Shown here one piece after another: positions 9,350 to 26,626 of a DNA stretch of 45,945 nucleotides (position 1 is the first letter of the stretch; the number at the start of each line of letters is the position of its first letter). Below the pieces are notes generated by a model. The model saw nothing but the letters and a program-made list of their open reading frames with translations, was not told where the DNA came from and made no database searches. This stretch comes from Streptomyces sp. RP5T (GTDB lineage Bacteria; Actinomycetota; Actinomycetes; Streptomycetales; Streptomycetaceae). The translations under genes and the position numbers were made by a program. The stretch spans positions 1-45,945 of the forward strand of contig NZ_RSAJ01000007.1 of NCBI RefSeq assembly GCF_003933965.1, given 5' to 3'.

Positions 9350-9566
9350 CCTGAGCGCAGAGACTCCGACGCCGCCACAAGGCCCGTCGGGCGTGCGGTG
9401 GTCCGGCACCGGCTGCCCACGCACGCGGGGCGGGGGCGGACCCGTCCATGGCCACCGTCACGGCCACGGCGTCCGGACGCGCGGCATGCGTCGACGGGCC
9501 CCAACACCGCCGTGGGCAGCAGTACTTGACCCTCACACCGTGTCAGGCGGTCGGCTGGGAGACATC

Positions 9567-10388: not shown

Positions 10389-10414
10389 CCGCACCCGCCC
10401 GGCCCGAGCAGTGA

Positions 10415-11866
10415 TCACGGTCGCCCCGAGGCCGCACCGGCGGCGGGGTCGGCCGCCCGGGCCGGGCGTTCGGTCACCCGGGCGCGTTGCCGACGGCGCG
10501 TCACCAGCACATAGGACAGCGCCACCACTGCGACGAAGGGCACGCCGGCCTGCCAGGCCAGGGAGAAGGCGTCCACGAAACCGGTCAGCACCAGGACGAG
10601 CAGGGTGAAGGCCATGGCGAGCGCCGTCGTGACCGGCGCCCCGGGCAGCCGCACCGTGGGCCTCCGCACCGGATCCTCGGCCCCGGCGCGCCTGAAGGCG
10701 AGATGTGTGGCGAAGATGAGCAGCCAGGTCACCATGCCGGTGAACAGGGCCGCGCCGAGGAGCACGGGAAACGCGGTGTCCGGCGACACGACGGACACGA
10801 CGGAGGCGGCCACCAGCCCCACCGCGGAGGCCAGCACGGCGGGCAGCGGGATCCTGCGGTCGCTGGTGCGCCCGAGAGCGCGCGGCGCGTATCCGCTCAG
10901 GGCGAGGGAGTGCATCATGCGGGAGGCCACGTACAGGTTGATGTTGGCGGCGGAGAGGGCGGCCGTCAGCACCACGGCGTTCATGATGTCGGCGGCCGCG
11001 GGGACGCCGACGAGGCTGAAGAGGCGCACGAACGGGCTCTGCTGCACACCGGAGACCTGCACGGTCTCGGTCCAGGGCATGATCGACACGATCACGGCGG
11101 TCCCCAGGACGTAGAACAGCAGCAGCCGCAGTACGGCCCCTCGTGCCGCTCTGGGCACGTCCCGGCCGGGGTCCTTGGATTCGGCCGCTGTCATGGCCAC
11201 GGCCTCGGTGCCGCCGTAGGCGAGTGTGGTGACCGTGAGCGCGAGCAGCATCCCCTTGAGGCCGTTCGGGGCGAAGCCGCCGTGCTCCGTCCAGCCGCCC
11301 AGGCCCGCCGCGGGATGCTCGCCCGCGCCGAAGAAGACGAAGGTCACGCCGAAGCCGATGAACAGGACGACGGCCAGCACCTTGACGAGGGCGAACCAGT
11401 ACTCGACCTCACCGAACACGGAGACCGCCGCGCAGTTCACGAGGGTGATGAACAGGGTGAAGACCACCACCGGTACCCACAGGGGAAGCTCCGGCCACCA
11501 GAAACGGAGGTAGATGCCGGCCGCCACGATCTCGCCGCCGATGGTGACGACCAGGCAACCCCAGTAGCACCATCTCTGCACGTATCCGGCCAGCGGCCCG
11601 AGGTAGCGGTCGGCGAGCCGGCCGAAGCCCCCGGCCTCCGGGTGCGCGGAGGTCATCTCGGCCAGGGCGTAGGCCAGGGCGATGGCGCACAGCGCTCCGG
11701 CGAGGTACAGGACCGTCACGGACGGCCCGGCCATGGACATGGCCAGTGAGGATCCGAGAAAGAGGCCGGTGCCCAGGGCGCCGCCGACGGCCAGCATGGT
11801 GATCTGGCGGCTGCCGAGCGACCGGTCCAGTCCGCTGTCCTCTCTGCCCGCTGCGTGGTCAGTCAT
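10415..11866 (-). CDS. APC-superfamily amino acid permease
   Basis: This 483-residue protein has about twelve hydrophobic segments and the amino-acid permease start region ITMLAVGGALGTGLFLGSS, with the AYGGTEAVAMTAAESKDPGRDVP motif typical of the AAT family (GabP/ProY/LysP type). It imports amino acids by proton symport. Its ATG overlaps the stop of the MFS gene by eight bases, making it the last gene of the leftward biosynthetic operon. It might supply tryptophan or another building block, or take up a product or intermediate. The substrate is not shown by the sequence. Confidence 0.9.
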   Translation of the reverse strand: MTDHAAGREDSGLDRSLGSRQITMLAVGGALGTGLFLGSSLAMSMAGPSVTVLYLAGALCAIALAYALAEMTSAHPEAGGFGRLADRYLGPLAGYVQRWCYWGCLVVTIGGEIVAAGIYLRFWWPELPLWVPVVVFTLFITLVNCAAVSVFGEVEYWFALVKVLAVVLFIGFGVTFVFFGAGEHPAAGLGGWTEHGGFAPNGLKGMLLALTVTTLAYGGTEAVAMTAAESKDPGRDVPRAARGAVLRLLLFYVLGTAVIVSIMPWTETVQVSGVQQSPFVRLFSLVGVPAAADIMNAVVLTAALSAANINLYVASRMMHSLALSGYAPRALGRTSDRRIPLPAVLASAVGLVAASVVSVVSPDTAFPVLLGAALFTGMVTWLLIFATHLAFRRAGAEDPVRRPTVRLPGAPVTTALAMAFTLLVLVLTGFVDAFSLAWQAGVPFVAVVALSYVLVTRRRQRARVTERPARAADPAAGAASGRP

Positions 11867-13148
11867 GGTCGAGCGGCTCCTTCACCCGGGTCTCGTCGTC
11901 GGCTTGCGGTGCACTGCGCTCACGGATGGCTCGCCCGAGCCCCCACTGTCCGGCGGCCACCAGAGCACAGACCCCGAAGCAGGTCGCCCACAGCGTCGTG
12001 GGTCCCGCGTGGGCGTACAGCTGCGTGCCTGCGGCCGGGGCGACCACGGCGGCCAGCGCGTAGGCCGCGCCGAAGAGCCCGTTGTAGCGCCCGCGCAGAT
12101 GCTCCGGTGCGAGGTCGGCGACGATGGTCTGCACGACGGCCGCGACGGTGATCTCGCCGGCAGTCCAGATCACCACCGTGACGGCGTAACCGGCGAGGCT
12201 GGACATCCAGGCGCCCAGACCGAACCCGGTGCCCATCAGCAGGACACCGCAGGCGATGACAGCGCTGTGGTCCCGCCGGCTGAGCCACTTGATGAGCAGG
12301 GGCTGTACGACGACCACGAGCACGCCGTTGACGGCGACGGCGAACCCGTAGTCGGCGGCGGTCAGTCCGCTGTCCACCATGGCGAGCGGCAGGGTGGAGC
12401 CGACCTGGAACTGGACGGACGCGTGCAGCAGGAGCAGCAGCACGTAGGCGACCATGACGCGGTCCCGCAGGACCTCCCGGTAGCTGCCCGGAGGTTGTCG
12501 CGCGCCCTGCTCGGGGCGTGGGGTGTCGGCCGGGAGGCGCCACCACACGAGGAGGCCGAACAGCACGCAGGTGACGGCGTCGATCCAGAAGAGCCACAGG
12601 AAGCCGCGCTGCGCCAGCACACCGCCGAGCACGGAGGCGACGGAGAACCCGACGTTGACCGCCCAGTACAGAAGGCCGTAGGCGCGGGGCCGGTCCTCCT
12701 TCTTCACGGCGTCGGCGACGATGGCCCCCGAGGCGGGCTGGTACAGCTGGAGGCACAGCCCCGCGAGGAAGGCCGTGGCGAGGATGGCCGCAAGGCCCCG
12801 GACGTAGCCGAGAGCCAGCAGGGCGGCCCCCGCGGCGACCGGACCGGTGGCGAAGGTGGCCCGGCGTCCCCACAGGTCGCTGAGGAACCCCCCGACCAGC
12901 TGGGAGCAGGTGCTGCCCAGGCCGAGTGCGGTGACGACGGCTCCCGCCCAGGTCACCGACATGGCGCGCTGGTCGGTGAGATAGAGGGTGAGGAACGGGA
13001 CCACCATGGTCCCGGCCCGGCTGACGAGAATGCCGGACCAGACCACCCAGTAGAGGTGCGGCAGTCCTCCGAAATGGGCCCGCAGGAAGCCGGCGACCCG
13101 TCCGGAGGGTGCGCCGCTCGGCGGACGGTCGGTCATCTGTCCTGTCAC
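11859..13148 (-). CDS. MFS exporter of the ATP-grasp cluster
   Basis: This 12-span transporter of about 429 residues has the motif-A region GGFLSDLWGRRATF after the second span and the LYQPASGAIVADAVKKEDRPRAYGLLYW region typical of small drug/peptide exporters (DHA1 or MdtH-like). The GTG at 13148 overlaps the preceding stop as GTGA; ATG 13136 is a possible alternative. It lies directly after the ATP-grasp genes in one continuous overlapping transcription unit, so the natural reading is export of, and self-resistance to, the cluster's product. The substrate is inferred from context only. Confidence 0.88.
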   Translation of the reverse strand: MTGQMTDRPPSGAPSGRVAGFLRAHFGGLPHLYWVVWSGILVSRAGTMVVPFLTLYLTDQRAMSVTWAGAVVTALGLGSTCSQLVGGFLSDLWGRRATFATGPVAAGAALLALGYVRGLAAILATAFLAGLCLQLYQPASGAIVADAVKKEDRPRAYGLLYWAVNVGFSVASVLGGVLAQRGFLWLFWIDAVTCVLFGLLVWWRLPADTPRPEQGARQPPGSYREVLRDRVMVAYVLLLLLHASVQFQVGSTLPLAMVDSGLTAADYGFAVAVNGVLVVVVQPLLIKWLSRRDHSAVIACGVLLMGTGFGLGAWMSSLAGYAVTVVIWTAGEITVAAVVQTIVADLAPEHLRGRYNGLFGAAYALAAVVAPAAGTQLYAHAGPTTLWATCFGVCALVAAGQWGLGRAIRERSAPQADDETRVKEPLDHD

Positions 13149-13459
13149 CAAGGGAGTTGCTCCGGCCGTGCGTGCGTGAGCCGGGCATGGGAGACCCGGA
13201 CCGAATCCGGATCGAGGCACGCCATGAAGGCCGCCGCTCGCGGATCCGTCCGGATCGATTCGGCGGCGGCCAGGGCGTCGGCGAGGTCCTTCCACCAGAC
13301 CAGATCGACGCGGCTGCCGTCGGTGTCGACGGTCAGCACCTGCCGGGACAGGAAGCCGGGCTGTTCCGCCAGGAAGTCGCCCACGGACCGGACGGCCTCG
13401 TCGAATTGGCGCTCGCCCACGCCGTCGTGGATGCGGAACGTCACGAGTTCAAGAATCAC
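13145..13459 (-). CDS. Small ABM/Dabb-like ferredoxin-fold protein
   Basis: This 104-residue protein reads as one alpha+beta ferredoxin-like domain: strand LELVTFRIHDG, helix with FLAEQPGF, strand SRQVLTVDTDG and the characteristic LVWWKDLADALAAAESI, then SVRVSHARL. This pattern fits the antibiotic-biosynthesis-monooxygenase superfamily, whose members include cofactor-free oxygenases, isomerases and proteins of unknown role. Its ATG overlaps the stop of the ATP-grasp gene before it (ATGA) and its stop overlaps the MFS start. It is thus firmly part of the operon and could be a tailoring enzyme; a catalytic role is not shown. Confidence 0.7.
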   Translation of the reverse strand: MILELVTFRIHDGVGERQFDEAVRSVGDFLAEQPGFLSRQVLTVDTDGSRVDLVWWKDLADALAAAESIRTDPRAAAFMACLDPDSVRVSHARLTHARPEQLPW

Positions 13460-14649
13460 CGGCTTGCCTGCCCATCGTCTTCCATGAGGAACTTCTCCGC
13501 GGACCCGTGATCCGGTGCCGTGAACAGGATGTGTCCGTGGCGCCGGTGGGGAAGTCTGATGTTGTCGAGCGCGTCGGGCTCCCGGCTGTCGGGTCCGGTG
13601 AGGACGACCTCCGCCTGGACGCCGGCAGGCAGGGCGGGCAGACGTCGTCCCATGCCGTCGGCGGTCCGGCCGAGGAACCGGACCCCCGCGATCCGGTGCG
13701 GGGCCGCCGGGGTGCGGGGCGCCTCGCCCGACAGCAGCGCGTCGTAGAACTGGCCGAACACCTTGATGTCCAGGGCTCGTTCCATCAGGAGCGGGATGAG
13801 GTCGCCGCCGAAGCGGGTGTGGATCTCGATGAGATCGACGGTCTCGCTCGTCACCTTCACCTCGGCGTGGATCGGGGCGGTGCCGATACCGAGGGCGGCC
13901 ACGACGTCCTGGACGTAGGACGCGAAGCGGGGGTCGTCCTGCTGGGCGCGGGCGGGCAGCACGTGCCCGGTCTCGTAGAAGGAGGGAAAGCCGCTGGTCT
14001 CCTTCTGCGTCACGGCGAGCAGATGGAAGGTCCCCGCCAGGCAGATGCCCTCCACGCTGTACTCGGTTCCGGGGACGAACTCCTCCAGCAGGAGGCGGCG
14101 CCCGCGGTCCTGTTCGGCACGCGGATCGTCGAAGAGGTCCGCGTAGGACGACACCTCGGCGTGATCCCGTACGGCGCGCACGCCGATGCTGCCGGTCATG
14201 TCGACGGGCTTCACGACGAACGGGACGGGGAAGACGGCCGCGGTGCGGGGCAGGTCCGCCAGCGTGGTCACGGCGGACCGCACGGTGGACAGCCCCTGGT
14301 CGACAAGCCGCTGCCGGGTGGCGCCCTTGTCCCGGATCAGGTCCTCGACGGCGCTCGGCTCACCCGGCAGGCCCAGTCGCTCCCGGACCCGTGCGGCGAG
14401 GCCGAGATGCAGCTCCGAGAAGGACAGGACCTGCTCCGGGGAGAGCGCGGCCACCGCGTCCGTGACGTGGTCCGGTGTCATGTCGGCGACCTCGATCAGC
14501 CGGGACACCGGAAGCGTGCCGGGGACGACACCGAGGCCCTCCGCCCGGTCGACGAGTGCGACGTCGAGCCCGCGCAACCGTGCCTGCACCACCGCTTCGT
14601 GCAGGGTGTACGACGTGCGGGGCACCCCCACGAGCGCCAGGTACGTCAT
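13456..14649 (-). CDS. ATP-grasp amino-acid/peptide ligase A
   Basis: This 397-residue enzyme has the normal ATP-grasp order: an N-terminal pre-ATP-grasp domain (LALVGVPRTSY), the nucleotide-binding Lys147 and Gly loop (FVVKPVDMTGSIGV), then metal-binding acidic residues Glu263 and Glu275 in the block EIHTRFGGD. Ligases of this group activate a carboxylate as acyl phosphate and join it to an amine. The metal block uses His where many relatives have Asn (ExH rather than ExN), as also in ligase D of this cluster. The ATG overlaps the previous stop and its ribosome-binding site GGAGGAGG lies inside the preceding gene. Substrates are unknown; amide formation between amino acids is the likely reaction. 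Confidence 0.85.
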   Translation of the reverse strand: MTYLALVGVPRTSYTLHEAVVQARLRGLDVALVDRAEGLGVVPGTLPVSRLIEVADMTPDHVTDAVAALSPEQVLSFSELHLGLAARVRERLGLPGEPSAVEDLIRDKGATRQRLVDQGLSTVRSAVTTLADLPRTAAVFPVPFVVKPVDMTGSIGVRAVRDHAEVSSYADLFDDPRAEQDRGRRLLLEEFVPGTEYSVEGICLAGTFHLLAVTQKETSGFPSFYETGHVLPARAQQDDPRFASYVQDVVAALGIGTAPIHAEVKVTSETVDLIEIHTRFGGDLIPLLMERALDIKVFGQFYDALLSGEAPRTPAAPHRIAGVRFLGRTADGMGRRLPALPAGVQAEVVLTGPDSREPDALDNIRLPHRRHGHILFTAPDHGSAEKFLMEDDGQASR

Positions 14650-15935
14650 ACGGCCTCCTCCAGTTCCGCCTTGAGAACGCCCCTGATCCGCTCGGCGGTG
14701 GCCTCCACCCCGGACCGGCTCTCCCCCTCCACGAGGAAGGCCGCGATGTGGTAGTCGGTGCCCTCCGGCAGCGTGACGAGGACGTCTCCCGGCTTCTTGA
14801 TGACGTCCAGGAGAAGCACTCCCGGCAGTTCACGAGCCGCTTCCTCGCCCGTGATGTGGACGACCCGGCCCGGGCGTTCCACGTTGACCGCGCCGTACAG
14901 GCAGGCGCGGTCGGCGGCTGACGGGGGCACCTGGGGCAGGGTCCCCTCGGCCATGAGCCGTACCAGGGCGGTCAACGGATCCACGCCGGTCAGACGCTCC
15001 ACGGCGAGAGGGGTGAGGAACCCCCCGGGGCGCAGCGCGCCCTCGATCACGACCGGTCCACGGTCCCCGACGCGGAGTTCCATGTGCGCCGCTCCTCTGG
15101 TCGCGCCCAGGGCGCGCGCGGCCCGCACCGCGACCTCGACGGCCCGGGCGACGTCGGCGGGGGCGAGGGAGACGGGGTGGACGCTGTGCACCTCGCCGAA
15201 GGTGGGGCCGGCGGCCGGGTGCTTCTCGAAGACGCCGAGGACCGCGTGACCGTTCTCGGACAGCAGCAGGTCGATGTTGAGTTCGGTGCCGCTGACGTAC
15301 TCCTGGGCGAGGACCGTCGCCGTGTCGTCCGTGGGCGCGTAGAGGTCGGCGAGCCTGTTGGCCGACGCCTCGGCCCGGTAGAGCCTGCGGATGACGGACA
15401 GTGCCTCTTCGAGTTCGGTTCGCGTGCGGACGAGCATGACGGACTGGCTGTTGGTGGACCGGGGGATCTTCACCACCATCCGGCCGTCGGCGCACTGGTC
15501 CAGCGCCTCCGCGCCGGCGTCGGGCTCCGCGGCGTCGAAGGTCCAGCTGCGGGGGTGGGGCACATCGGCGTGCCGGAAGCGGGCGGAGGCGAGCGACTTG
15601 TCCCGGGCGGCGCGCGCGGCGTCCGGTGTGCAGCCGGGCAGGCCGAGCGCCTCGGTGATGAGAGCGGCGGTCTCCACCGCGCCCTCCCACACGGAGAAGG
15701 CCGCGTCCAGGGGGGCGTCCCGATGCAGCTTCCGCGCGAGCGTCACGGCCTCGCCGGGGCTGCCGTACGTGTGCACCACGACTCGCTCGGCAAGGGCCGG
15801 CGGCGCTGTCGGTGTCGGGCCCGCGGTGGCGGGGACGAGCAGGACGACCTCGTCCGCCGCGGCGAGCAGGGAACGCAGCAACCTCGGTGCGGCAGAGGCG
15901 TGCAGCGCGAGGACCCGTGTGCTTCGAACCGTCAT
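14646..15935 (-). CDS. ATP-grasp ligase B with altered active-site motifs
   Basis: This 429-residue protein aligns with ATP-grasp ligases in overall order: N-terminal domain, Lys156 (GRMVVKIPRS), the adenine-binding EYVSGTELNIDLL region, Glu286 (HMELRV) and a terminal block IEGALRPGG. Two features differ from ligases A and D. The glycine loop after the lysine reads TNSQSV, with no glycines, and the ExN/ExH metal block reads EGA, with Ala300 where a metal-binding Asn or His normally stands. It may have lost activity, use a different metal arrangement, or act as a partner of another ligase. It overlaps both neighbours by four bases. The family assignment is good; its function is uncertain. Confidence 0.78.
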   Translation of the reverse strand: MTVRSTRVLALHASAAPRLLRSLLAAADEVVLLVPATAGPTPTAPPALAERVVVHTYGSPGEAVTLARKLHRDAPLDAAFSVWEGAVETAALITEALGLPGCTPDAARAARDKSLASARFRHADVPHPRSWTFDAAEPDAGAEALDQCADGRMVVKIPRSTNSQSVMLVRTRTELEEALSVIRRLYRAEASANRLADLYAPTDDTATVLAQEYVSGTELNIDLLLSENGHAVLGVFEKHPAAGPTFGEVHSVHPVSLAPADVARAVEVAVRAARALGATRGAAHMELRVGDRGPVVIEGALRPGGFLTPLAVERLTGVDPLTALVRLMAEGTLPQVPPSAADRACLYGAVNVERPGRVVHITGEEAARELPGVLLLDVIKKPGDVLVTLPEGTDYHIAAFLVEGESRSGVEATAERIRGVLKAELEEAV

Positions 15936-17278
15936 AGTCCTTCGCTTCCAGACACCGCGAGTCCGGCAGGGATGTGTTCGTCGAGCGGTTCACAGGCCGC
16001 GGGCGCGAAGAACGCGCCCTGGTGGACGTTGGCGACACCATCGGTTCCGGCGGGGACGCCGCGGGCGAGGAACCCCGCGCAGTGACCGTCCACGTAGAGG
16101 CAGCCGACGCCCACTTCGAAGGGCGCGCGTCCGCCGGGGACAGGAAGATCGAGGCTGCCGGAAGCCACGTGGTCCTGGAGGACGTGCGGGCGGTCGAGCG
16201 CGGCGGCGAGCCGTTCGTCCCACACCTCGGCCGGCACGGCACGCCCGATGACCACGCCCCTGCCTCCGTAGCCGATCGCGGGCTTGAGCACGAGGTGCTC
16301 GCGTTCGGCGCGCGCCCAGGACAGGACGTCCGGGGTGAGCAGGCGGGTGGCCGCCACTCCCCCGGGCCCGTCGGGCGGTTGCTCGCCGTCCTCCGTCGCC
16401 AGCATCGCCTTGTTGCCGAGCAGGCTGAAGACGGGCGGTGCCACATAGACGGGTCCACCGCGTGCGTGGCAGGCGAGGGCGGCGTCGACGAATGTCCGGT
16501 ACCGGGGCGTGATGACCTCGTCGTAGGTGAAGCAGCCGTAGACGAGGTCGACGCGTTGTCCGCCGGCCTCGGCACGGGCGCCGTCGAAGGAGATCTCCGA
16601 GGTGCGGGCCACCGTCGCTGCGAAGCCCTGGCCGGTCAGGTAGTGCGCGGCGTCGTGGGGGATGGGGATGTCGGCCTCTTCGTCTGTGACGGCCAGCACG
16701 ATCCGGGGGCGGGGCCCGTCCGGCGGCACGTCGACCAGACGCCGGAGTGCGCTCCCCCAGGGCACGGCCGGCCGGGGCAGGCGCTCGCCGGGTGACTCCG
16801 AGCGGAACAGCTCGGCGGCACCCGGCAGTTCGTCCACGACCTCGGCGTACCGGTCGAGGATGCCGATGCCGCCGACGGTCGGGCCGACGTTGATCTCGAC
16901 CAGGCGCGGCCCGCCGGGGCCCAGGACGAAGTCGGCGCGGGCGAAGGAAGCGGCCATGTCCAGTGCCGCGGGCGTGTGCATCGAGGCCAGCCATGACGCC
17001 TCGTCAGGGGGGTGTCCCAGGCCGCCGAGCGTGCTGCCGGAGCCGTCGGCCAGAGCACGGGACGCCCGGTCACGCAGCCGTGCCATGCAGGTGCGGGTCG
17101 TGTCCCACATGACGCGCGCCGCGCCGGAGGAGACGACCAGGGGCGCGAAGGCGGGCCGGATGCGCCGGTAGCCCTCGTGGTGCGCCGCGAAACGTGCGGG
17201 CAGCGCGGTGCCGAGCTGGCTGAACGACGCGTCCCAGGCGGCGTCCGGCACCCGCAGAGCCGGTTCGTTGCTCCTCAT
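15932..17278 (-). CDS. Circularly permuted ATP-grasp ligase C
   Basis: This 448-residue protein carries ATP-grasp motifs in the reverse of the usual order. The metal-binding ExN block, VEIN (Glu128, Asn130), followed by VGPTVGGIGI, lies in the first third. The nucleotide-binding lysine and glycine loop, LKPAIGYGGRGV (Lys332), lies near the C-terminus, and VHQGAFFAP ends the fold. That order is the mark of circularly permuted ATP-grasp enzymes (the glutathionylspermidine-synthase-like and related groups), which form amide bonds. The start ATG 17278 overlaps the stop of ligase D. It is not a recent duplicate of the other three ligases, so it probably makes a distinct bond. Substrates are unknown. 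Confidence 0.78.
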   Translation of the reverse strand: MRSNEPALRVPDAAWDASFSQLGTALPARFAAHHEGYRRIRPAFAPLVVSSGAARVMWDTTRTCMARLRDRASRALADGSGSTLGGLGHPPDEASWLASMHTPAALDMAASFARADFVLGPGGPRLVEINVGPTVGGIGILDRYAEVVDELPGAAELFRSESPGERLPRPAVPWGSALRRLVDVPPDGPRPRIVLAVTDEEADIPIPHDAAHYLTGQGFAATVARTSEISFDGARAEAGGQRVDLVYGCFTYDEVITPRYRTFVDAALACHARGGPVYVAPPVFSLLGNKAMLATEDGEQPPDGPGGVAATRLLTPDVLSWARAEREHLVLKPAIGYGGRGVVIGRAVPAEVWDERLAAALDRPHVLQDHVASGSLDLPVPGGRAPFEVGVGCLYVDGHCAGFLARGVPAGTDGVANVHQGAFFAPAACEPLDEHIPAGLAVSGSEGL

Positions 17279-18516
17279 GAGCCGGACGCCTCCCTGGCAG
17301 CCGCTTCGTCGGCTCGCGGCGACTGCGCCAGCATGAAGTCGATGTTCTCGCGCACCGCACGGTGGGCGGGGGCGCGGAACAGGGCCCGCCCGGCGCGCCA
17401 GTACATCAGGCGCACGCCTTCGTAGGCGCGCAGTTTGGGTTCGGCGGTCGCGTCGACCTCCAGCTGTACGACCGCCTCGGGGTGCGGGAAGTCGTACGAG
17501 GCCCAGCGGAAGGGCGATCCGACGGGGGCGCTGAAGAAGCCGACGCCCCAGACCGCGTCACGGTTCTGGTCGCTCGACGCGGGCCGTGTCCCGTCGAGCA
17601 TCGCGGCGAAGTAGGCCTCGAAGGGTCGTACTCCACAGCTCTTCTCCAGCAGCCGCACGATGTCGTCGCCGCCGTAGCGGGTGTGCAGCTCGATGAGCTC
17701 GACGGCGTCGTCGGTCATCTTCAGTTCGGCGTGCACCGGAGAGGTCACCACGCCGAGCGCCGTGACGCAGCGTTGCAGGTAGTCCCCTGCCCGCGCCCCC
17801 CACTGCGCGCTGTGCGCACTGGGCATGAGGTGCCCGACCTCGACGTAGTGGGGGGAGCCGGTGTTCACCTTGTCGGTCAGCGCGAACACGTGCAGTTCGC
17901 CGTCGACGACCAGGCCTTCGACGCTGATTTCGACACCGGGTACGTAGCTTTCGACGAGCAGCCGGTGACGGTCGAACCGCTGGGCCGTCTCGCGCTGGTA
18001 CTGCTCGATCAGCGGCGCCACGTCCGCGGGTGAGGCGACCAGCCGGACGCCGGCACTTCCCGTCAGCTGACGGGGCTTGACGACGACCGGCAGGTCGACG
18101 GCCGCGACGAGGTCGGCGACCTCGTCGAGCGTCGTCTCCCAGTGACCGACCCGGGTCAGCCCGTGCTTCTGCAGGAGGCCTCGGGTGCGGAACTTGTCGG
18201 CGACGGTCAGCTCGGTGTCGGCCGCCGTGCCCAAGTGGCCCACGGCCGTGCGAACCCGGGCGGCGAGCTCCATGGTCAGCTCGGTGATCGACACGATGCA
18301 GTCGGGCCCGATCCGGTGCGCCGCCGCGACGAGTTCGGGCTCGTCGAGGACGGGGACCGGGACGCGCTCGTACGTCGGGTCGTCACCGAGGGAGCTCAGT
18401 GTGTCCGCGGTGTCGACCACGTGCAGCCGAGCGCCCAGCCGCTCGGCGTCACGTGCCGCCGGGGCGAGCTCGTGGCTGCTCCACGGGACACCGACCACCA
18501 TGATTCGCCTGGCCAT
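17275..18516 (-). CDS. ATP-grasp amino-acid/peptide ligase D
   Basis: This 413-residue ligase has the canonical layout: N-terminal domain starting RRIMVVGVPWSSHEL, Lys147 with glycine loop (VVVKPRQLTGSAGV), then Glu264 and the ELHTRYGGDD metal block (Glu276, His278). It resembles ligase A in length, lysine position and the ExH block, so the two may be old paralogues. The reaction expected is ATP-dependent amide ligation of an amino acid. ATG 18516 is chosen over longer frames because the beta strand IMVVGV of the pre-ATP-grasp fold begins right after it. It follows the radical SAM gene with a 28-bp gap and overlaps ligase C by four bases. Confidence 0.87.
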   Translation of the reverse strand: MARRIMVVGVPWSSHELAPAARDAERLGARLHVVDTADTLSSLGDDPTYERVPVPVLDEPELVAAAHRIGPDCIVSITELTMELAARVRTAVGHLGTAADTELTVADKFRTRGLLQKHGLTRVGHWETTLDEVADLVAAVDLPVVVKPRQLTGSAGVRLVASPADVAPLIEQYQRETAQRFDRHRLLVESYVPGVEISVEGLVVDGELHVFALTDKVNTGSPHYVEVGHLMPSAHSAQWGARAGDYLQRCVTALGVVTSPVHAELKMTDDAVELIELHTRYGGDDIVRLLEKSCGVRPFEAYFAAMLDGTRPASSDQNRDAVWGVGFFSAPVGSPFRWASYDFPHPEAVVQLEVDATAEPKLRAYEGVRLMYWRAGRALFRAPAHRAVRENIDFMLAQSPRADEAAAREASGS

Positions 18517-18544
18517 ACTCCACTTTCCGTTCACGCGGCGGAGG

Positions 18545-19882
18545 TCACAGGGTGACGCGGTTCGAATAGTGCGAGTCGAGTTCCTCGACCCAGCTGTCGT
18601 GGATCTCCCGTTGCGGGTCCTCGAAGAGGTCCACCGTGATGTTCGGGATCCACTCCTTGCCCTTGTCCGTGAGCCGCAGCTCGCCGTCGTCGATGAGGGC
18701 GTATCCCTGCTCGACGAGGTTGTCGAGGAAGACCCGGGTCCGCGCGTCGTCGGGGATGCGGTCCAGCGGTGTGCGGAAGAACTTCGGGAAGAACACCATG
18801 CCCCGGTTGCGGGGGTCCGCAAGGAGCGCCGACACCTTGTTGACCGGCAGCTTGCCCTCTTCGATCTGCTCCACGTAGGGGTCGGGGGCGAGCGTGTTGG
18901 CGTAGCTGTAGCCGTTCAGGTAGCCGCGGGCCGAGGCGCCGACGGCCAGGGTCTCGGCACGGTGCTCGCCGAACCCGCCGCCCCACAGCAGGCGGTAGTA
19001 CTCGGAGCCCTGGGGGTTCTTGGCGTACACGTGGTCGGTGACGTGGTGGTAGCCGAGTTCCTTCATGCGGCGCTGCACGAGCTGCCCCATCTGGGGCCGC
19101 ATCTCCGCGGGCGGCCTGCGCGGGTACGTGCCCTTCTCCATGCCGAGGAACGTGCTCTTGGGCATGGCGTAGTAGGACATGTAGTAGTAGTCGACGCTGT
19201 CGAACCCGCAGTTGCCGAGTTCCTTGAGGTCGCGCTCCACCGCGGCCAGGGTCTGGCCGGGCATGTAGTACATCATGTCGACGTTGATGTCCTCGAAGCC
19301 GAGCTCCTTGGCCCGCTCATTGGCCGTGAGGGCGTCCTGCACCGTGGCGGCGATGTTCATGGTCATCCGCAGCGGCTCGTCGAACGTCTGGATGCCGTAG
19401 CTGAGCCGCTTGGTGCCCTGCGAGGCGAGGAACTCCAGCAGCTCCGGGTTGCACAGCCCGGCCGGCTCCCCTTCGAAGGTCCACTCGGCGTCGGGTTCGA
19501 TGGCGAAGTTGCGGCGCAGCGCCTCGTACAGGCGCTTGATCTGCGGGACCGTGAGCAGCGAGGGGGATCCGCCGCCGAAGTACACCGCGCGGAAGGTCAT
19601 GCCCTGCACGTAGGGCAGCCGGCCCAGCATCTCGATCTCCCGCAGCAGCGCGACCACATAGCGCTCGTACACGGAGACGTCGCGCTTGACGCGCACGTGG
19701 AAGGGGCAGAAGGTGCACCGCTTCTCGCAGTACGGGATGTGCAGGTAGAGCAGGTTGTCCGTGGCTTCCGGCTTGGGGCTGTCGAGCACCCGCAGGAAGT
19801 CGGAGAACGGGGCGACCTGTGGGTCGGTGTGCCGCTGCAGCGGGTAGAAGTGGTGCGTCACCGGCACCAGCGTTTCGTACAC
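18545..19882 (-). CDS. HemN-like radical SAM enzyme
   Basis: This 445-residue enzyme has the HemN-type cluster motif CEKRCTFC (Cys52, Cys56, Cys59) within LYLHIPYCEKRCTFCPF, the GGGSPSLL SAM-binding loop near residue 103, and a C-terminal HemN_C-like domain (GASARGYLNGYSYAN, later LRLTDKGKEW). HemN relatives include coproporphyrinogen dehydrogenase and also natural-product enzymes that methylate or cyclopropanate (NosN, C10P, Jaw5). Its place between a tryptophan halogenase and four ligases argues for a tailoring role such as C-methylation or another radical reaction, rather than heme synthesis. It starts at GTG 19882. No partner methyltransferase is next to it. Confidence 0.85.
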   Translation of the reverse strand: MYETLVPVTHHFYPLQRHTDPQVAPFSDFLRVLDSPKPEATDNLLYLHIPYCEKRCTFCPFHVRVKRDVSVYERYVVALLREIEMLGRLPYVQGMTFRAVYFGGGSPSLLTVPQIKRLYEALRRNFAIEPDAEWTFEGEPAGLCNPELLEFLASQGTKRLSYGIQTFDEPLRMTMNIAATVQDALTANERAKELGFEDINVDMMYYMPGQTLAAVERDLKELGNCGFDSVDYYYMSYYAMPKSTFLGMEKGTYPRRPPAEMRPQMGQLVQRRMKELGYHHVTDHVYAKNPQGSEYYRLLWGGGFGEHRAETLAVGASARGYLNGYSYANTLAPDPYVEQIEEGKLPVNKVSALLADPRNRGMVFFPKFFRTPLDRIPDDARTRVFLDNLVEQGYALIDDGELRLTDKGKEWIPNITVDLFEDPQREIHDSWVEELDSHYSNRVTL

Positions 19883-19900
19883 GGCCGTGCTTCCCCTTTC

Positions 19901-21568
<1,668 letters not shown>

Positions 21569-22111
21569 TCAGCCTGTGTGGACTGGCCACGAAGCGAACG
21601 TGCGCAGTCCGTACATCAGCGGCGAACCCTTCGACGTGCCGTCTATGCGAGTGACGCGTCCCAAAGTCAGCACGTGATCTCCGACTTCATGGGTCTCGGT
21701 CAGCGCACATTCCGCCCAGGCGAAGGAATCGTCCACCAGCCATGGAATTCCGGCGATCCCAGCAGGTTCCCAGTTGACTTTCTGGAAGCGATCAGGGACC
21801 GGAGTGGAAAATATCCTCGCTGCTCGCTCGCCCTTCTCATGGAGCAGGTTGACGCCGAATACCCGACTCCGTTGCATCGCGTCGAGCACGGGGCTCGCGC
21901 TCTTCACGGACACCAGCAGGGTCGGCGGCTCCAAGGTGACACTGACGAGGGAGGAGCAGGTCAAGCCGTATGGCTGCCCTGTCGCAGGACAGCGGGTGGT
22001 GATCACGGCGACACCGGTGGGGAAACCACTCATGAGGTCCGCACCGGCGCGCGGAGAAACGTAGGAAACACCAGTCGATGCCGAACCCGATCCGGGCATC
22101 AACTCCCCCAT
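21569..22111 (-). CDS. Flavin reductase partner of the halogenase
   Basis: This 180-residue protein is a short-chain flavin reductase of the Flavin_Reduct (DIM6/NTAB) family: FPTGVAVITTR, GLTCSSLVSVTLEPPTLLVSV and RVFGVNLLHEKGERAARIFS are typical. It reduces FAD or FMN with NAD(P)H; paired with a halogenase it supplies FADH2, as RebF and PrnF do. It is the first gene of the leftward operon, and its promoter must lie in the divergent region to its right. Starts at ATG 22111, 22099 or 22033 are possible; 22033 (MSGFPTG) would still keep the whole domain. Confidence 0.92.
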   Translation of the reverse strand: MGELMPGSGSASTGVSYVSPRAGADLMSGFPTGVAVITTRCPATGQPYGLTCSSLVSVTLEPPTLLVSVKSASPVLDAMQRSRVFGVNLLHEKGERAARIFSTPVPDRFQKVNWEPAGIAGIPWLVDDSFAWAECALTETHEVGDHVLTLGRVTRIDGTSKGSPLMYGLRTFASWPVHTG

Positions 22112-22168
22112 TCAGCACGACTGCGTCCTGATAAAGGTTCGCCACGGCGCGGATATGGCAGATCGTTC

Positions 22169-22188
22169 GGAACCCTGACGAGGGTTCC
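22169..22188. promoter_or_regulatory. Perfect 8-bp inverted repeat
   Basis: The arms GGAACCCT and AGGGTTCC are perfectly complementary with a GACG centre. It lies about 60 bp upstream of the flavin-reductase start. It could be an operator or a short hairpin in the leader of the leftward transcript. Confidence 0.45.
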
Positions 22189-22219
22189 TTGCCGGTGCCA
22201 CGCAGATCGCTGATGCGCC

Positions 22220-22239
22220 GTACAGTTCGGGGACTGTAC
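22220..22239. promoter_or_regulatory. Perfect 7-bp inverted repeat, candidate operator
   Basis: The arms GTACAGT and ACTGTAC are perfectly complementary with a 6-bp centre (TCGGGG). Its symmetry, 20-bp length and position in the divergent region suggest the binding site of a dimeric regulator for one or both operons. No regulator gene is inside the cluster. Confidence 0.5.
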
Positions 22240-22511
22240 ATAAGCCCGGGTGGGCCGCACAACATCCGCTGTCATTGCGTCAGAGTTTGGCCGAAACGCT
22301 GCATGGTTTGCCCGGGACCGCGAGGGTCCTGGTGTACTACCAGTTGCATCGGGGTAAGGTGCGCAGTTGCCGCTGGCGTATGCCACTCGCATGTCGGCGG
22401 TGCAGTGCTCGGGTGCGCCGGGATCGGACGGACTTCCCTTGCTGTGGCGTGCCCTGCGGGCTTATTCGCGTTGGTCAGCAAGTCGTCCAAGCCTGTTGAG
22501 GAGTATGTTCC

Positions 22512-23171
22512 ATGACCCAGCCTGGCGTGGGGCCCTCGGTGCCGACCCTGCTCGGGCGGCAGCCACGGCCCCCTGCCCACACGGGTTTCGATCGACTGGC
22601 GGTCGTCGTGGCCGCCCCCGACATGAAGCGTCTGGAGCTCGCCGTCGACGACCGTCGCGGCAAGCTCGCCGAGGCGGCCGAGTACGCCCGCGAGAACGCG
22701 AAGTGCTACTCGGACTGGTTCACCCGGAACGGCCATGCCAGTCCCCTGGCCGGCCAGCTCCGGGCCGTCGCCGACGGACGGCCCCTGCGTGGCCCCGCCC
22801 CCGTACGGGCTTTGCTGCACTGCGAGTTGTCCCACGGAGTGCTGATGGGCGTGCAGGACTTCGACGCGGTACGCGGCCCGGTCCGGGTGGAGTACGCCGC
22901 GGCGGGGGACGAGTTCGCGGGCTTCCGGTCCACGGTGACGTGCGGTGCCGGCGAGCCCGTCCTGCGGGACGACGCCGGCATTTTCGCCTCGGTCTTCCAG
23001 GGGCCCGACGCCCGGACCGGCATCACCCGGGACACCGAGCGGCTCCTGTTCCTGGTCTTCGACGCACCAGGTCTGAGCCCCGAACGGTTCGAAGCGGCGG
23101 TGCACGACGTCTCGGCACTGCTCGACGAGGCCGGCGGAGCTCCTCGCGCCGAAAGAGTCGACCTCGCATGA
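22512..23171 (+). CDS. Free-standing B3/B4 domain protein (PheRS-beta editing-like)
   Basis: This 219-residue protein resembles the stand-alone B3/B4 domain related to the editing region of the phenylalanyl-tRNA synthetase beta subunit. Supporting stretches are LLHCELSHGVLMGVQDFDAV, GPVRVEYAAAGDEF and ITRDTERLLFLVFDA (Thr172-Thr175 in the TxDT-like motif). In PheRS this region hydrolyses mischarged Tyr-tRNA; the role of free-standing forms is largely unknown. It opens the rightward operon (ATG 22512, GAGGAG eight bases upstream) and its stop overlaps the next start (ATGA). Beside a tryptophan halogenase it may deacylate tRNA charged with a non-natural amino acid, but this is speculation. Confidence 0.65.
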   Translation: MTQPGVGPSVPTLLGRQPRPPAHTGFDRLAVVVAAPDMKRLELAVDDRRGKLAEAAEYARENAKCYSDWFTRNGHASPLAGQLRAVADGRPLRGPAPVRALLHCELSHGVLMGVQDFDAVRGPVRVEYAAAGDEFAGFRSTVTCGAGEPVLRDDAGIFASVFQGPDARTGITRDTERLLFLVFDAPGLSPERFEAAVHDVSALLDEAGGAPRAERVDLA

Positions 23172-23839
23172 GGGTCAACGGCACGGTCCGCTCCGTCTGG
23201 GACGGGCCGTTACCCCCCGCGCACGAACGCCGGGTCCTCATCCACGTGTCCGACCGCGATCCGAAACCTGACGTCGTCACGGCCGCCCTCGACTGGCAGC
23301 AGGCCCGCATCGGATCGGTGTTCGTGTCCGTCGGAGCCCGGCACGCCGGAAGCGACGACGAAGCCGAACTGGTCCAATCCCTGCTGCGCATGGGGTACTT
23401 GCCGCAGCAGACCACGTTCTACACACCACGTGAGGTGCGCCGCCTCCCGGAGCTGGCCGACATCGTCAGCGAGCTGTGGCGGCGATCGACGGACGATCAT
23501 CTGCCCACACCGCCCGACCATCGGGCCCCCGCCGTCGCCGAACTCCTGGCGGTGGGTGCCACGGACACGTTCGGCATCCCCGACTCCCTGGTGGACGCCG
23601 CCCGTCACACCGCGGCCTGTCTGAACCGACTGCTCGGGTCCAGCGAACTACCGCTAGCGACCGCCGGACCGGCGTCCCCGCCCACGAGGCACCCGCATGC
23701 CGTTTCCGCTCCGGTGACTCCTCCTGGTCCGGCGGACGGCCCGACGAGGCGCCAGGACGCCCGTCGGCTGCTTCGCACCGGAGGGGTCCAAGTCACCCTG
23801 GAGTGCGACCAGTTGCTCAGTCTGCTCTGTGACATCTAG
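23168..23839 (+). CDS. Unrecognised protein of 223 residues
   Basis: I do not recognise this family. The first 150 residues look globular: a beta-rich start (VRSVWDGPLPPAHERRVLIHVSD), a segment SVFVSVGARHAG and a Leu-rich helical region ending in AACLNRLLG. Residues about 155-190 are Pro/Thr-rich and probably a flexible linker, followed by a short tail containing TRRQDARRLL and a hydrophobic end. It begins in an ATGA overlap with the B3/B4 gene, so it is translationally coupled, and it precedes the TDO-like gene by 100 bp. A partner or accessory protein of either neighbour is possible. Confidence 0.7.
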   Translation: MRVNGTVRSVWDGPLPPAHERRVLIHVSDRDPKPDVVTAALDWQQARIGSVFVSVGARHAGSDDEAELVQSLLRMGYLPQQTTFYTPREVRRLPELADIVSELWRRSTDDHLPTPPDHRAPAVAELLAVGATDTFGIPDSLVDAARHTAACLNRLLGSSELPLATAGPASPPTRHPHAVSAPVTPPGPADGPTRRQDARRLLRTGGVQVTLECDQLLSLLCDI

Positions 23840-23939
23840 GAAGCGCGCGGCCTGAGGGGATCGAGCCGATCGTGCCGACGCCGGTCGGCAGCCCCCGCCA
23901 GGACCTTTGGTACGCCACCTTCTGACTCCTGGAGCCCTC

Positions 23940-25283
23940 ATGAAGGCACCGTCGGTTGTCCGTGCTGTTCTCGACTTCGACGTGGCGGAGTACGTCTCCA
24001 CGACACGCGCGGTGGGAAGGCATCACCTCGATCCCGAACTGCGCAACCGTATGGCCGAGTTGTATCTGGACCTGCGCGACGCACTTCACGAGCCCGACGC
24101 CGTGTTCGACCGTCGGGAGCTGCGCGTGCTCCGCTTCGCCGAACTGGCGCTGCAAAGCGAGTGGAAACTCGCCGACCCCTCGGGCGGCACGGACTGCGCG
24201 GGCCTGCTGAACACGGTGAGCGGCCCCCGGGGCAAGCGCTACCAGCCCTACGCGAACGTACGCCTTCTCAATCAGGTGCTGGGAACCCGACGCGGTTCCA
24301 GCGACGCGTCCATCGAGTACCGCTGCCGGCAGACACTGCGGTTCCTCGTCCGTTCCTGGCTGGAGTACGAACGACGCTCGTCGAACGGCACGGAGACGAC
24401 ATGGGGGTGGCAACGCCCGCTGACGCCGGACGCGATGAGCGAGCGCCTCGACCGCCTCGCGCGGCTGCGGCAGGACACCGCCGACTGGCCGTCACTGCCA
24501 CGGCCGCATCCTGTTCCTCCCGCTCGCTGGCATCACTACGTGGGCGACGCGGGGCGCAGCGACACCCTCGAGTACCTGGTGAACCTGCCCCAGACGCAGC
24601 ATCACGACGAGAACGCGTTCCTCCGGGTCATCCACCTGACCGAGGTGACGACGTCCGGCATCCTGGCCCGCACGCTCGGAGCCAAGACATGGCTGGAGGC
24701 GGGAAGGCTGCGGGAGGCCGCGATGTGCCTGGAGCGCGCCGCCGCCCTCGCGTCCCTGCAACTGGACGTGATGCGGGTGCTGCGCCGGACCATGTCGGTG
24801 GAGAACTTCCTCGGCTTCCGCAAGGAGACCGGAGACGCGAGCGCGGTCCAGATGACCTCCTCGCAGGCCCTGCACGTGCACCTTCTCGGCGTACACCCCC
24901 TCAAGGTGGAGGCCCTCGAAGGGGTCCCCGAGAACGCCTTCCTGCTCTTCCACCTCAACGACCGCTTCCGCCCCCTGCGCTCCCTCCTGCATGAGCTGCC
25001 CACCGACCGCGACGAGGCCGCCCAGGTACTGGCCGCGGCGCGTGATCTCGACGAGACGCTGTACGCGTGGCGCCGGCTGCACCTCGGACTCGCTCATCGC
25101 TATCTGCCGAAGGACTCGATGGGCTCGGGAGGCACCTCCGGAGCGCCGTACCTGGCCGGCTTCTACCAGGACCGACTCTTCGACCACGCGGGCGAGTTGA
25201 CCCCGCACCCGGTGCCCGTCACCTCGCCCGCCCTGGAGGGCCGGCCGGTGTGGGCGCGTGCGGTCTTCTCCCCCATGAACTGA
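23940..25283 (+). CDS. Tryptophan 2,3-dioxygenase-superfamily heme enzyme with N-terminal extension
   Basis: The C-terminal half (about residues 200-415) aligns with heme-dependent tryptophan 2,3-dioxygenase (TDO). HHDE (221-224) leads to the distal His232 (IHLTEV), Arg294 in LGFRKETG matches the carboxylate-binding arginine, and AWRRLHLG (His381) plus GSGGTSG match the proximal histidine and substrate-ammonium loop, with Ser396 replacing the usual Thr. TDO opens the indole ring to N-formylkynurenine; relatives such as PrnB and MarE do other indole oxidations. TDOs are usually under 300 residues, and the first 200 residues here are of no family I know. No kynurenine formamidase is nearby. ATG 23940 follows GGAG; a TTG at 23907 is less likely. 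Confidence 0.82.
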   Translation: MKAPSVVRAVLDFDVAEYVSTTRAVGRHHLDPELRNRMAELYLDLRDALHEPDAVFDRRELRVLRFAELALQSEWKLADPSGGTDCAGLLNTVSGPRGKRYQPYANVRLLNQVLGTRRGSSDASIEYRCRQTLRFLVRSWLEYERRSSNGTETTWGWQRPLTPDAMSERLDRLARLRQDTADWPSLPRPHPVPPARWHHYVGDAGRSDTLEYLVNLPQTQHHDENAFLRVIHLTEVTTSGILARTLGAKTWLEAGRLREAAMCLERAAALASLQLDVMRVLRRTMSVENFLGFRKETGDASAVQMTSSQALHVHLLGVHPLKVEALEGVPENAFLLFHLNDRFRPLRSLLHELPTDRDEAAQVLAAARDLDETLYAWRRLHLGLAHRYLPKDSMGSGGTSGAPYLAGFYQDRLFDHAGELTPHPVPVTSPALEGRPVWARAVFSPMN

Positions 25284-25318
25284 ACGGGCCAGGTTGACTC
25301 AGAGCACGAGGAGAACTT

Positions 25319-26626
25319 GTGTCCAACGCCGAACAGATGACCCGCCTTCTGATCTCCTTGCCCGTCGTGATCCTGGCGTGCCGTGCCGGTGCCGCGGTGT
25401 TGCGTCGCCTCAGGCAGCCGCCCGTCGTGGGCGAGATCGCCGTCGGAATCCTCCTGGGCCCGTCGCTCCTCGGCCGGCTCTGGCCGCAGGGCCATGCCTA
25501 CCTATTCCCGCAGGGTGTCATCGACCACATCGAGGTGCTCGGACAGCTGGGACTGCTCGCCTTCATGTTCTTCGTCGGCCTGGAACTGGACCCGGGCCGC
25601 CTCAGGGGGAACGGACGGGCCGCCGTCGTCGTCAGCCAGTGCAGCATCCTCGTGCCGTTGCTGCTGGGGTCGTTGCTGGCCCTGGCCATGTACGGCTCAC
25701 TGGCTCCTCGGGGCGTCAGCAAGGGCGCGTTCGTGCTCTTCGTCGCGGTGGCGCTGAGTGTCACGGCCTTTCCGGTCCTGGCCCGCATCCTCATCGACGA
25801 CGGGCTCTATCACACCCGGTTGGGCAGCTTGGCCATGACCTGCGCCGCCGCGAACGACGTCATGGCCTGGTGTCTGCTCGCCGTGGTGGTCGCGGTCGCG
25901 ACCGGCGGCACGTCCCTCGCGTTCCTGAGCACCCTGGCCCTGCTGGTGGGCTACTTCGCGGTGATGCTGCGGGTGGTGCGTCCCGCGCTCGCCCGGGCGA
26001 GCCGGCTCCGGCGGTTCACCGTGGGCGGAGAGAACCATGACGGACTGGTCCTGGTGCTGCTGTTCAGCGGGTTGTGTCTGTCCGCGCTGGCCACCGACGC
26101 CATCGGGGTGCACGCCATCTTCGGCGCCTTCCTCTTCGGTCTCGTCGTGCCACGGCGAACGGTCGTGGTGGAGCGGGCCGCGACCCGGATGCGCTCGGTC
26201 ACCGAACCCCTGCTGCTCCCCCTGTTCTTCGTGACGACCGGCCTCCACACCGACATCGGTCTCCTTGCCTCCGATCCGAGGCAGTGGCTGTGGTTCAGCG
26301 CCGTGCTGTTCGTGGCCGTCGTGGGCAAGTGGGGCGGCGGCGGGGGCGCCGCGCGTCTGAGCGGCATGCCGTGGCGGGAGTCCCTCGTGCTCGGGGCGCT
26401 GCTGAACTGCCGGGGCCTGACCGAGCTCATCGTCCTGAACGTCGGCCTCGATCTGGGGGTGATCTCCGAGAGCATGTTCACCATGCTGGTCCTCGTGGCC
26501 ATGCTCACCACCGCGGTCACCTCCCCGGCGGTCAGGGCGCTCGGCACGGGGGCACCCATCGTGCCCGCCCGTGAGGAAGAAAGGGTCACCGCGCGAGACG
26601 TTCCTGAGCGTTCTCAGCCAGGATGA
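25319..26626 (+). CDS. CPA2-type cation/proton antiporter
   Basis: This 435-residue protein has about 12-13 hydrophobic segments and the CPA2 (KefB/NapA-like) signatures: VGEIAVGILLGPSLLG in the second span, FVGLELDPGRL, the ND pair of the ion site in TCAAANDVMAW, and NCRGLTELIVLNVGLDLG. It exchanges K+ or Na+ for H+; similar antiporters also occur in antibiotic clusters. It starts at GTG 25319 behind GAGGAG and follows the TDO-like gene by 35 bp, so it is probably the last gene of that operon. There is no cytoplasmic TrkA-N regulatory domain; the protein ends soon after the last span. Confidence 0.88.
   Translation: MSNAEQMTRLLISLPVVILACRAGAAVLRRLRQPPVVGEIAVGILLGPSLLGRLWPQGHAYLFPQGVIDHIEVLGQLGLLAFMFFVGLELDPGRLRGNGRAAVVVSQCSILVPLLLGSLLALAMYGSLAPRGVSKGAFVLFVAVALSVTAFPVLARILIDDGLYHTRLGSLAMTCAAANDVMAWCLLAVVVAVATGGTSLAFLSTLALLVGYFAVMLRVVRPALARASRLRRFTVGGENHDGLVLVLLFSGLCLSALATDAIGVHAIFGAFLFGLVVPRRTVVVERAATRMRSVTEPLLLPLFFVTTGLHTDIGLLASDPRQWLWFSAVLFVAVVGKWGGGGGAARLSGMPWRESLVLGALLNCRGLTELIVLNVGLDLGVISESMFTMLVLVAMLTTAVTSPAVRALGTGAPIVPAREEERVTARDVPERSQPG

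What the first reader, a model, noticed from the sequence alone, without database searches (positions are those of the whole stretch)
10415..26626. NRPS-free cluster joining tryptophan halogenase, TDO-like heme enzyme, HemN-like radical SAM and four ATP-grasp ligases
Seen: one overlapping ten-gene operon (halogenase, flavin reductase, radical SAM, four ATP-grasp genes, ABM-like, MFS, permease) and a divergent operon (B3/B4 protein, unknown protein, TDO-like enzyme, antiporter). Known: tryptophan halogenase plus TDO gives chlorokynurenine in taromycin-type pathways, and ATP-grasp enzymes make di- and oligopeptides. Inference: a small halogenated, indole- or kynurenine-derived peptide built without an NRPS. 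I do not recognise this gene set as a described cluster.
Basis: partly seen in the sequence, partly recalled or inferred. Interest (0 to 1): 0.9.

Follow-up and report, generated by a model that had tools for sequence, protein, structure and literature searches.

The report
Four-ligase chlorotryptophan peptide gene cluster
A Streptomyces-type bacterium carries an uncharacterised set of genes that probably builds a small chlorinated, tryptophan-based peptide with four stand-alone ligase enzymes instead of the usual giant assembly line, and the core of the set also turns up in a very distant soil bacterium.

Summary
The gene set is real: a ten-gene minus-strand operon and a divergent operon, with no NRPS condensation or AMP-binding match on the contig. 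Four ATP-grasp ligases are confirmed; LigC, which has no Pfam match, folds as a glutathione-synthetase/Cp1B-type ligase. The halogenase is 69% identical to the Trp 6-halogenase BorH. The "TDO-like" protein is a divergent, N-terminally extended member of the TDO/PrnB/MarE superfamily that keeps the heme His and carboxylate Arg but lacks TDO's distal His.

One scan of 84,980 species genomes found two relatives. Streptomyces spongiae has the same 13 genes in both operons, not the antiporter. Bradyrhizobium sp. Ghvi has the radical-SAM gene and all four ligases in the same order, without halogenase or TDO, beside a gene related to L-tryptophan decarboxylases. So the core is rSAM + four ligases, and halogenation is lineage-specific.

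Best reading: an NRPS-independent pathway to a small peptide or pseudopeptide with a 6-chlorotryptophan-derived unit. The product, the rSAM and heme-enzyme reactions and the ligase order are inferred. No described cluster with this set appeared in the paper listings I saw.

The parts
10415..11866 (-). amino-acid permease (APC family), last gene of the operon
   Evidence: PF00324 333 bits; 84% identity in S. spongiae L068, same place
11859..13295 (-). MFS exporter (start uncertain)
   Evidence: PF07690 209 bits; 80% in L068
13145..13459 (-). small ABM-like protein
   Evidence: PF03992 19.4 bits, below the 23.1 cut-off; 76% in L068
13456..14649 (-). LigA, ATP-grasp amino-acid ligase
   Evidence: PF13535 77.7 bits; 77% in L068, 45% in L069
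14646..15935 (-). LigB, ATP-grasp L-amino-acid ligase with LAL_C2 domain
   Evidence: PF13535 and PF18603 over cut-off; 77% / 45%
15932..17278 (-). LigC, ATP-grasp ligase of the glutathione-synthetase / glutathionylspermidine-synthase / Cp1B type
   Evidence: no Pfam; profile hits 3n6x 1.9e-8 and 9cjn Cp1B 1.2e-7; model pLDDT 82, Foldseek human GS 5.6e-16, Cp1B 2.7e-14; 65% / 44%
17275..18516 (-). LigD, ATP-grasp ligase, paralogue of LigA (35%)
   Evidence: PF13535 70.9 bits on the longer frame; 78% / 49%
18545..19882 (-). HemN/HutW-like radical SAM enzyme, C52-x3-C56-x2-C59
   Evidence: PF04055 74 bits; TIGR04107 192 bits, below the 400 cut-off; 90% / 60%
19901..21496 (-). flavin-dependent tryptophan halogenase, probably Trp-6
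   Evidence: PF04820 547 bits; BorH 6ul2 E 3e-264, 366 of 527 identical; 90% in L068
21569..22111 (-). flavin reductase (FADH2 supply)
   Evidence: PF01613 123 bits; 69% in L068
22512..23171 (+). B3/4-domain-like protein, possible editing / self-protection role
   Evidence: PF03483 21.1 bits, below the 29.3 cut-off; 73% in L068, 19.9 bits there
23168..23839 (+). protein of unknown family
   Evidence: no Pfam or NCBIfam match for the whole frame 22367-23839; 47% in L068, same place, also without Pfam match
23940..25283 (+). TDO-like heme oxygenase-superfamily protein (447 aa, extended N-terminus)
   Evidence: PF03301 39.7 bits; profile to TDO 2e-24; model pLDDT 65, weak Foldseek matches to TDO/MarE/PrnB, best 6e-4; 76% in L068
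25319..26626 (+). Na+/H+ antiporter, adjacent, probably not part of the conserved cluster
   Evidence: PF00999 204 bits; outside the block shared with S. spongiae; a 37% homologue sits in the Bradyrhizobium locus

Best explanation
A complete, uncharacterised NRPS-independent biosynthetic cluster (13 genes, 10415-25283). Steps: (1) flavin reductase plus halogenase make 6-chlorotryptophan (about 80% likely; regiochemistry by homology). (2) The TDO-like heme protein oxidises the chlorotryptophan or a derivative of it, by ring opening as in TDO or by MarE/PrnB-like chemistry (about 60% that its substrate is a Trp derivative). (3) The HemN/HutW-like radical SAM enzyme makes a carbon modification, most likely C-methylation, on a building block shared with the Bradyrhizobium pathway, so not necessarily on the halogenated unit (about 50%). 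(4) LigD, LigC, LigB and LigA each form an amide bond via acyl phosphates. LigA, LigB and LigD are of the L-amino-acid-ligase kind; LigC is of the glutathione-synthetase/Cp1B kind, which joins an acid or peptide to an amine or amino acid. The result would be a peptide or pseudopeptide of up to five units. (5) MFS and permease move product or precursor; the B3/4-like protein may remove mischarged chloro-amino-acyl-tRNA as self-protection (speculative). Shown: gene content, conservation, fold families, residue conservation. Inferred: every reaction, the order, and the product.
For: Families. Halogenase 366 of 527 identical to BorH, catalytic Lys at position 80, TYYG and AEFRNFW segments kept (BorH role from PMC11840605, passages). 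LigC fold, with Cp1B precedent (PMC12568646, passages). TDO superfamily with R294, S301 and H381 at XcTDO R117, S124 and H240. No NRPS match on the contig. Thirteen genes in both operons in S. spongiae. rSAM and four one-to-one best-matching ligases in order in Bradyrhizobium, with a PSD-family gene whose best solved relatives are L-tryptophan decarboxylases (8x4q, 3e-46). Of 8 relatives of the TDO-like protein with one or more neighbours scanned, 2 lie beside a gene with a kynureninase C-terminal domain and 3 beside another class-V PLP enzyme; one of the latter (L041) has ATP-grasp genes in the same stretch.
Against: Halogenase and TDO-like protein have no match in the Bradyrhizobium genome, so the conserved core need not act on Trp at all. 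The decarboxylase there matches NCBIfam only as phosphatidylserine decarboxylase, below cut-off. TDO distal His is Ile231. LigA/LigD have E-x-H and LigB E-x-A where typical ATP-grasps (recalled) have E-x-N, so one or more may have altered chemistry. 3 of 8 TDO-like loci showed unrelated neighbours, and of 11 loci searched with the cluster's ligases only L041 had hits. Structural matches of the TDO-like model are weak (1 at E <= 0.001). No metabolite or expression evidence.
Confidence: 0.62

Rival explanations
1. Two functional modules share the locus: the rSAM + four-ligase core makes a peptide unrelated to tryptophan, and the halogenase/TDO module makes a separate cap or a separate halogenated metabolite.
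For: The core stands alone in Bradyrhizobium, whose genome has no match to the halogenase or the TDO-like protein.
Against: The halogenase lies 18 bases before rSAM in the operon and is conserved there in S. spongiae; a gene related to L-tryptophan decarboxylases in the Bradyrhizobium locus keeps a Trp theme.
Confidence: 0.22
2. A narrower version of the best explanation: the TDO-like enzyme and halogenase make 4-chlorokynurenine as in taromycin-type pathways, which the ATP-grasps then put into a peptide.
For: Halogenase of the Trp-6 kind; carboxylate-binding Arg and heme His kept; kynureninase-type neighbours in 2 of 8 scanned relatives.
Against: TIGR03036 47 bits against a cut-off of 390.7; distal His replaced by Ile; no formamidase recognised by Pfam or NCBIfam among the 14 genes; MarE and PrnB show that the fold does other reactions.
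Confidence: 0.3
3. The ATP-grasp genes modify a ribosomal or other precursor (graspetide- or thioamide-like) rather than build a free oligopeptide.
For: rSAM plus ATP-grasp also occurs in RiPP clusters (recalled).
Against: LigB has the L-amino-acid-ligase C-terminal domain over cut-off; LigA/B/D match PRK02186-, BacD- and DdaF-type models, below cut-off; apart from rSAM and ATP-grasp no RiPP maturation family was matched. Short precursor genes were not searched for.
Confidence: 0.08

Closest known systems
NRPS-independent ATP-grasp peptide pathways (dapdiamide DdaF, bacilysin BacD; recalled)
   Same: stand-alone ATP-grasp ligases make amide bonds; LigA/B/D match the DdaF and BacD models below cut-off
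   Different: four ligases including a glutathione-synthetase-type one, plus halogenase, heme enzyme and HemN-like rSAM
Fungal E-64 pathway (Cp1B)
   Same: LigC shares the Cp1B / homoglutathione-synthetase fold; Cp1B is a pseudodipeptide-forming ATP-grasp enzyme (PMC12568646, passages)
   Different: 15% identity in the structural alignment; E-64 uses one ATP-grasp plus an ANL-family amide synthetase; no halogenase is mentioned in the passages I read
Trp 6-halogenases BorH and Thal
   Same: 366 of 527 residues identical to BorH, catalytic Lys kept
   Different: genomic context: borregomycin is a bisindole pathway (recalled)
Taromycin (halogenase + TDO, chlorokynurenine; recalled) and pyrrolnitrin (PrnA/PrnB)
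   Same: a Trp halogenase with a TDO-superfamily heme enzyme
   Different: taromycin is an NRPS product (recalled); PrnB acts on 7-Cl-Trp (PMC11791213, passages); the window enzyme forms a separate extended branch
HutW/ChuW, HemN and class C radical SAM methylases (NocN)
   Same: HemN-type rSAM sequence, near full-length match to TIGR04107, NocN 9p2u E 5e-22
   Different: 192 bits against a 400 cut-off; operon with ligases

Membership tests
NRPS-independent ATP-grasp peptide cluster | stand-alone amino-acid ligases of the ATP-grasp fold | tested here: met
NRPS-independent ATP-grasp peptide cluster | no NRPS on the contig | tested here: met
   0 of 7 PF00668 and 0 of 38 PF00501 matches on C1125
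NRPS-independent ATP-grasp peptide cluster | ligases form amide bonds between amino acids | not testable with these tools
   needs enzyme assays
Flavin-dependent Trp halogenase (free Trp, 6-position) | family profile, catalytic Lys, [11 protein letters not shown] segment | tested here: met
   (role of the segment recalled)
Flavin-dependent Trp halogenase (free Trp, 6-position) | chlorination at C6 | not testable with these tools
   inferred from 69.5% identity to BorH
Tryptophan 2,3-dioxygenase (true TDO) | NCBIfam TIGR03036 equivalog cut-off | tested here: not met
   47.2 vs 390.7 bits
Tryptophan 2,3-dioxygenase (true TDO) | distal His (XcTDO H55) | tested here: not met
   Ile231 at this column; His232 falls on Q56 (role recalled)
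[quoted passage not shown]
   PF03301 over cut-off; the 50 Foldseek rows shown are TDO, MarE or PrnB, but the model has pLDDT 65 and only 1 match has E <= 0.001; H381, R294
HutW/ChuW radical SAM methyltransferase | TIGR04107 cut-off | tested here: not met
   192.1 vs 400
HemN-like radical SAM enzyme | CX3CX2C cluster motif and HemN-family similarity | tested here: met
   C52, C56, C59 invariant in three loci; HemN 1olt E 4e-27
Glutathione-synthetase / Cp1B type ATP-grasp (LigC) | fold and E-x-N plus two-Lys pattern | tested here: met
   E128, N130, K290, K332 invariant in 10 sequences; roles recalled

The most novel reading that the evidence does not exclude
The rSAM + LigD-C-B-A cassette is a portable 'assembly line without an NRPS' that makes the same modified oligopeptide scaffold in Streptomyces and Bradyrhizobium, each host adding a different tryptophan-derived end group (chlorinated and oxidised in one, decarboxylated in the other), with the TDO-like enzyme doing non-dioxygenase chemistry on the halogenated indole.
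Probability: 0.3. Interest if true: 0.75.

Novelty: new variant of a known kind. Interest (0 to 1): 0.62.

Why it matters
Known ATP-grasp pathways, as recalled, use few ligases. Four consecutive ligases of two structural types, kept one-to-one and in order across two phyla, would give a genetically compact, template-free oligopeptide line with defined order and, in Streptomyces, a built-in halogenation step. It would also place an unexplored extended TDO-like family and a HemN-like radical SAM enzyme in a testable pathway.

Tried and rejected
Looked for the set in relatives by one protein at a time. TDO-like protein: 17 of 150 relatives at E <= 0.001, own included. LigC: 91 of 392 same-genus genomes at E <= 0.001, own included; the best other by E-value is 31% identical. 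rSAM: 11 of 392 at 1e-40, own included, others 29-31%. rSAM alignment: 1 of 384 in the class at 1e-75, 1 of 265 in the genus of the Bradyrhizobium at 1e-60 and 1 of 377 in its order at 1e-75, in each case the source itself. The samples overlap and do not hold every species. The genome-contig scan used six exact peptide patterns, so relatives much below 60% may be missed. Plasmid collection: no copy of the cluster.

Rejected: antiporter as a core member (absent from the conserved block; though the Bradyrhizobium locus holds that genome's best homologue, and S. spongiae has one on another contig). Kynureninase reading of the L041 class-V enzyme: SufS-type models score higher. Model of the TDO-like protein: pLDDT 65, used only for fold assignment.

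Paper searches: of which some were aimed at LigC and rSAM, not at the set; I saw listings and starts of abstracts, several capped at 12-25 rows. Three papers were opened for passages only. The library is open-licence PMC only.

Full report
Observation. On the minus strand, from upstream to downstream: flavin reductase, halogenase, radical SAM, LigD, LigC, LigB, LigA, ABM-like, MFS, permease. On the plus strand: B3/4-like, unknown, TDO-like, antiporter. The ligase genes overlap by 4 bases each. The window is a complete contig (C1125, 45,945 bases) and the cluster is internal. The genome has 7 Condensation-domain and 38 AMP-binding matches at E <= 0.001, none on this contig. No tool names the organism; I infer a Streptomyces from its similarity to S. 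spongiae (81% over an 11.7-kb piece).

Conservation. A single scan of 84,980 species genomes with the radical SAM protein returned two loci. L068, Streptomyces spongiae NBRC 106415, holds all ten operon genes and the three divergent genes B3/4, unknown and TDO-like at 46-90% identity in the same arrangement. Nucleotide similarity covers 10505-22110, 22494-23635 and 23929-25374 and stops just after the TDO-like gene, so the antiporter is not in the shared block. Next to it S. spongiae has a sigma-factor gene and a Pyr_redox gene instead. L069, Bradyrhizobium sp. Ghvi, holds rSAM (60%), LigD (49%), LigC (44%), LigB (45%) and LigA (45%) in the same order, and each ligase matches its namesake best. 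That genome has no match to the TDO-like protein or the halogenase. The flanking genes there are an amidohydrolase, an FAD/NAD-dependent oxidoreductase, a PSD-family gene whose best solved relatives are L-tryptophan decarboxylases (8x4q, E 3e-46), an unknown, and a Na/H antiporter. NCBIfam knows that gene only as phosphatidylserine decarboxylase, below cut-off. The set is rare in samples: rSAM relatives at E <= 1e-40 in 11 of 392 same-genus genomes, those other than the window's own at 29-31% identity; 1 of 384 in the class (E <= 1e-75), 1 of 265 (1e-60) and 1 of 377 (1e-75) around Bradyrhizobium, in each case the source itself. These samples overlap and do not cover all species.

Ligases. LigA and LigD are paralogues (35%); LigB has the LAL_C2 domain. 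LigC has no Pfam match. A profile of ten sequences (window and nine others) hits a putative glutathionylspermidine synthase (1.9e-8) and Cp1B (1.2e-7), and its model (pLDDT 82) matches human glutathione synthetase (5.6e-16), Cp1B (2.7e-14) and YgiC (3.7e-12). Cp1B is a pseudodipeptide-forming ATP-grasp enzyme of E-64 biosynthesis (PMC12568646, passages read). In six loci that I picked among the LigC matches (L052-L057), other ATP-grasp genes similar to LigA/B/D lie nearby in 5 of 6 and an MFS gene in 4 of 6. This is a small, selected set, but it suggests a wider class of two-type ligase clusters.

Halogenase. E 3e-264 to BorH (6ul2), 366 of 527 identical. BorH chlorinates Trp at C6 and Lys79 is catalytic (PMC11840605, passages); the window has Lys80 at this place. 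I infer 6-chlorotryptophan.

TDO-like protein. Alone it finds TDO chains at 4e-4; a profile with its relatives finds TDO at 2e-24. Mapping through the printed alignments to XcTDO: F51->F227, H55->I231, Y113->F290, R117->R294, S124->S301, H240->H381, T254->S396 (residue roles recalled). The substrate-carboxylate Arg and heme His are kept and the distal His is not. The model is weak (pLDDT 65) and only one structural match has E <= 0.001, but the 50 matches shown are TDO, MarE or PrnB. One search found matches in 17 of 150 genomes, own included; I fetched 11 loci (L041-L051). L051 is an ordinary-length TDO (275 aa) and was left out. In 8 loci (L041, L042, L044-L049; not L043 and L050) one or more neighbours were scanned: 2 lie beside a gene with a kynureninase C-terminal domain, 3 beside another class-V PLP enzyme, and 3 showed unrelated neighbours; L041 and L049 also carry a second TDO-family gene. 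L041 further holds an LAL-type ATP-grasp, a LigC-like frame (52% over 50 residues; PF14403 below cut-off), a Trp-synthase-alpha gene and a TrpG-type amidotransferase gene. It is the only one of the 11 loci with hits to the cluster's ligases.

Radical SAM. HemN/HutW-like: TIGR04107 192 bits, below the 400 cut-off; HemN 1olt 4e-27 and NocN 5e-22; CX3CX2C invariant. It is kept where halogenase and TDO are not, so its substrate is more likely the shared scaffold than the chlorinated unit.

Verdict. The antiporter should be dropped, and chlorokynurenine is only one option. The structure that matters is a conserved rSAM + four-ligase core with exchangeable tryptophan chemistry. I saw no paper describing this set in the listings (one search returned none), within an open-licence library and capped lists; no curated cluster database was available.

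Noticed in passing
L041 (G071:C90) 9682-18035: A different cluster in a same-genus genome: LAL-type ATP-grasp, FMN reductase, LigC-like ATP-grasp frame, two TDO-family genes flanking a class-V PLP enzyme, with Trp-synthase-alpha and TrpG-type genes nearby.
   Followed up: partly
L052-L056: LigC-like (glutathione-synthetase-type) ligases recur beside LigA/B/D-like ligases, in 4 of these 5 with an MFS gene: perhaps an unnamed wider class of clusters.
   Followed up: partly
window 20036-21476: The halogenase region has a 74% nucleotide match in a Mycobacterium ulcerans plasmid record, NZ_CP083743.1, in two pieces, with an ISAs1 transposase annotated under the match.
   Followed up: no
window 13456-18516: LigA and LigD carry E-x-H and LigB E-x-A in the 'IE..xRxGG' motif where ATP-grasps usually have E-x-N (usual form recalled), also in the S. 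spongiae and Bradyrhizobium orthologues.
   Followed up: no
L068:2065-4470: S. spongiae has a sigma-70-family gene with a weak SnoaL-like tail, and a Pyr_redox gene, directly beyond the TDO-like gene; the window has the antiporter there.
   Followed up: no
window 8021-10388: A MEDS/HATPase protein and a MerR/GyrI regulator frame lie just before the cluster; neither is in the block shared with S. spongiae.
   Followed up: no
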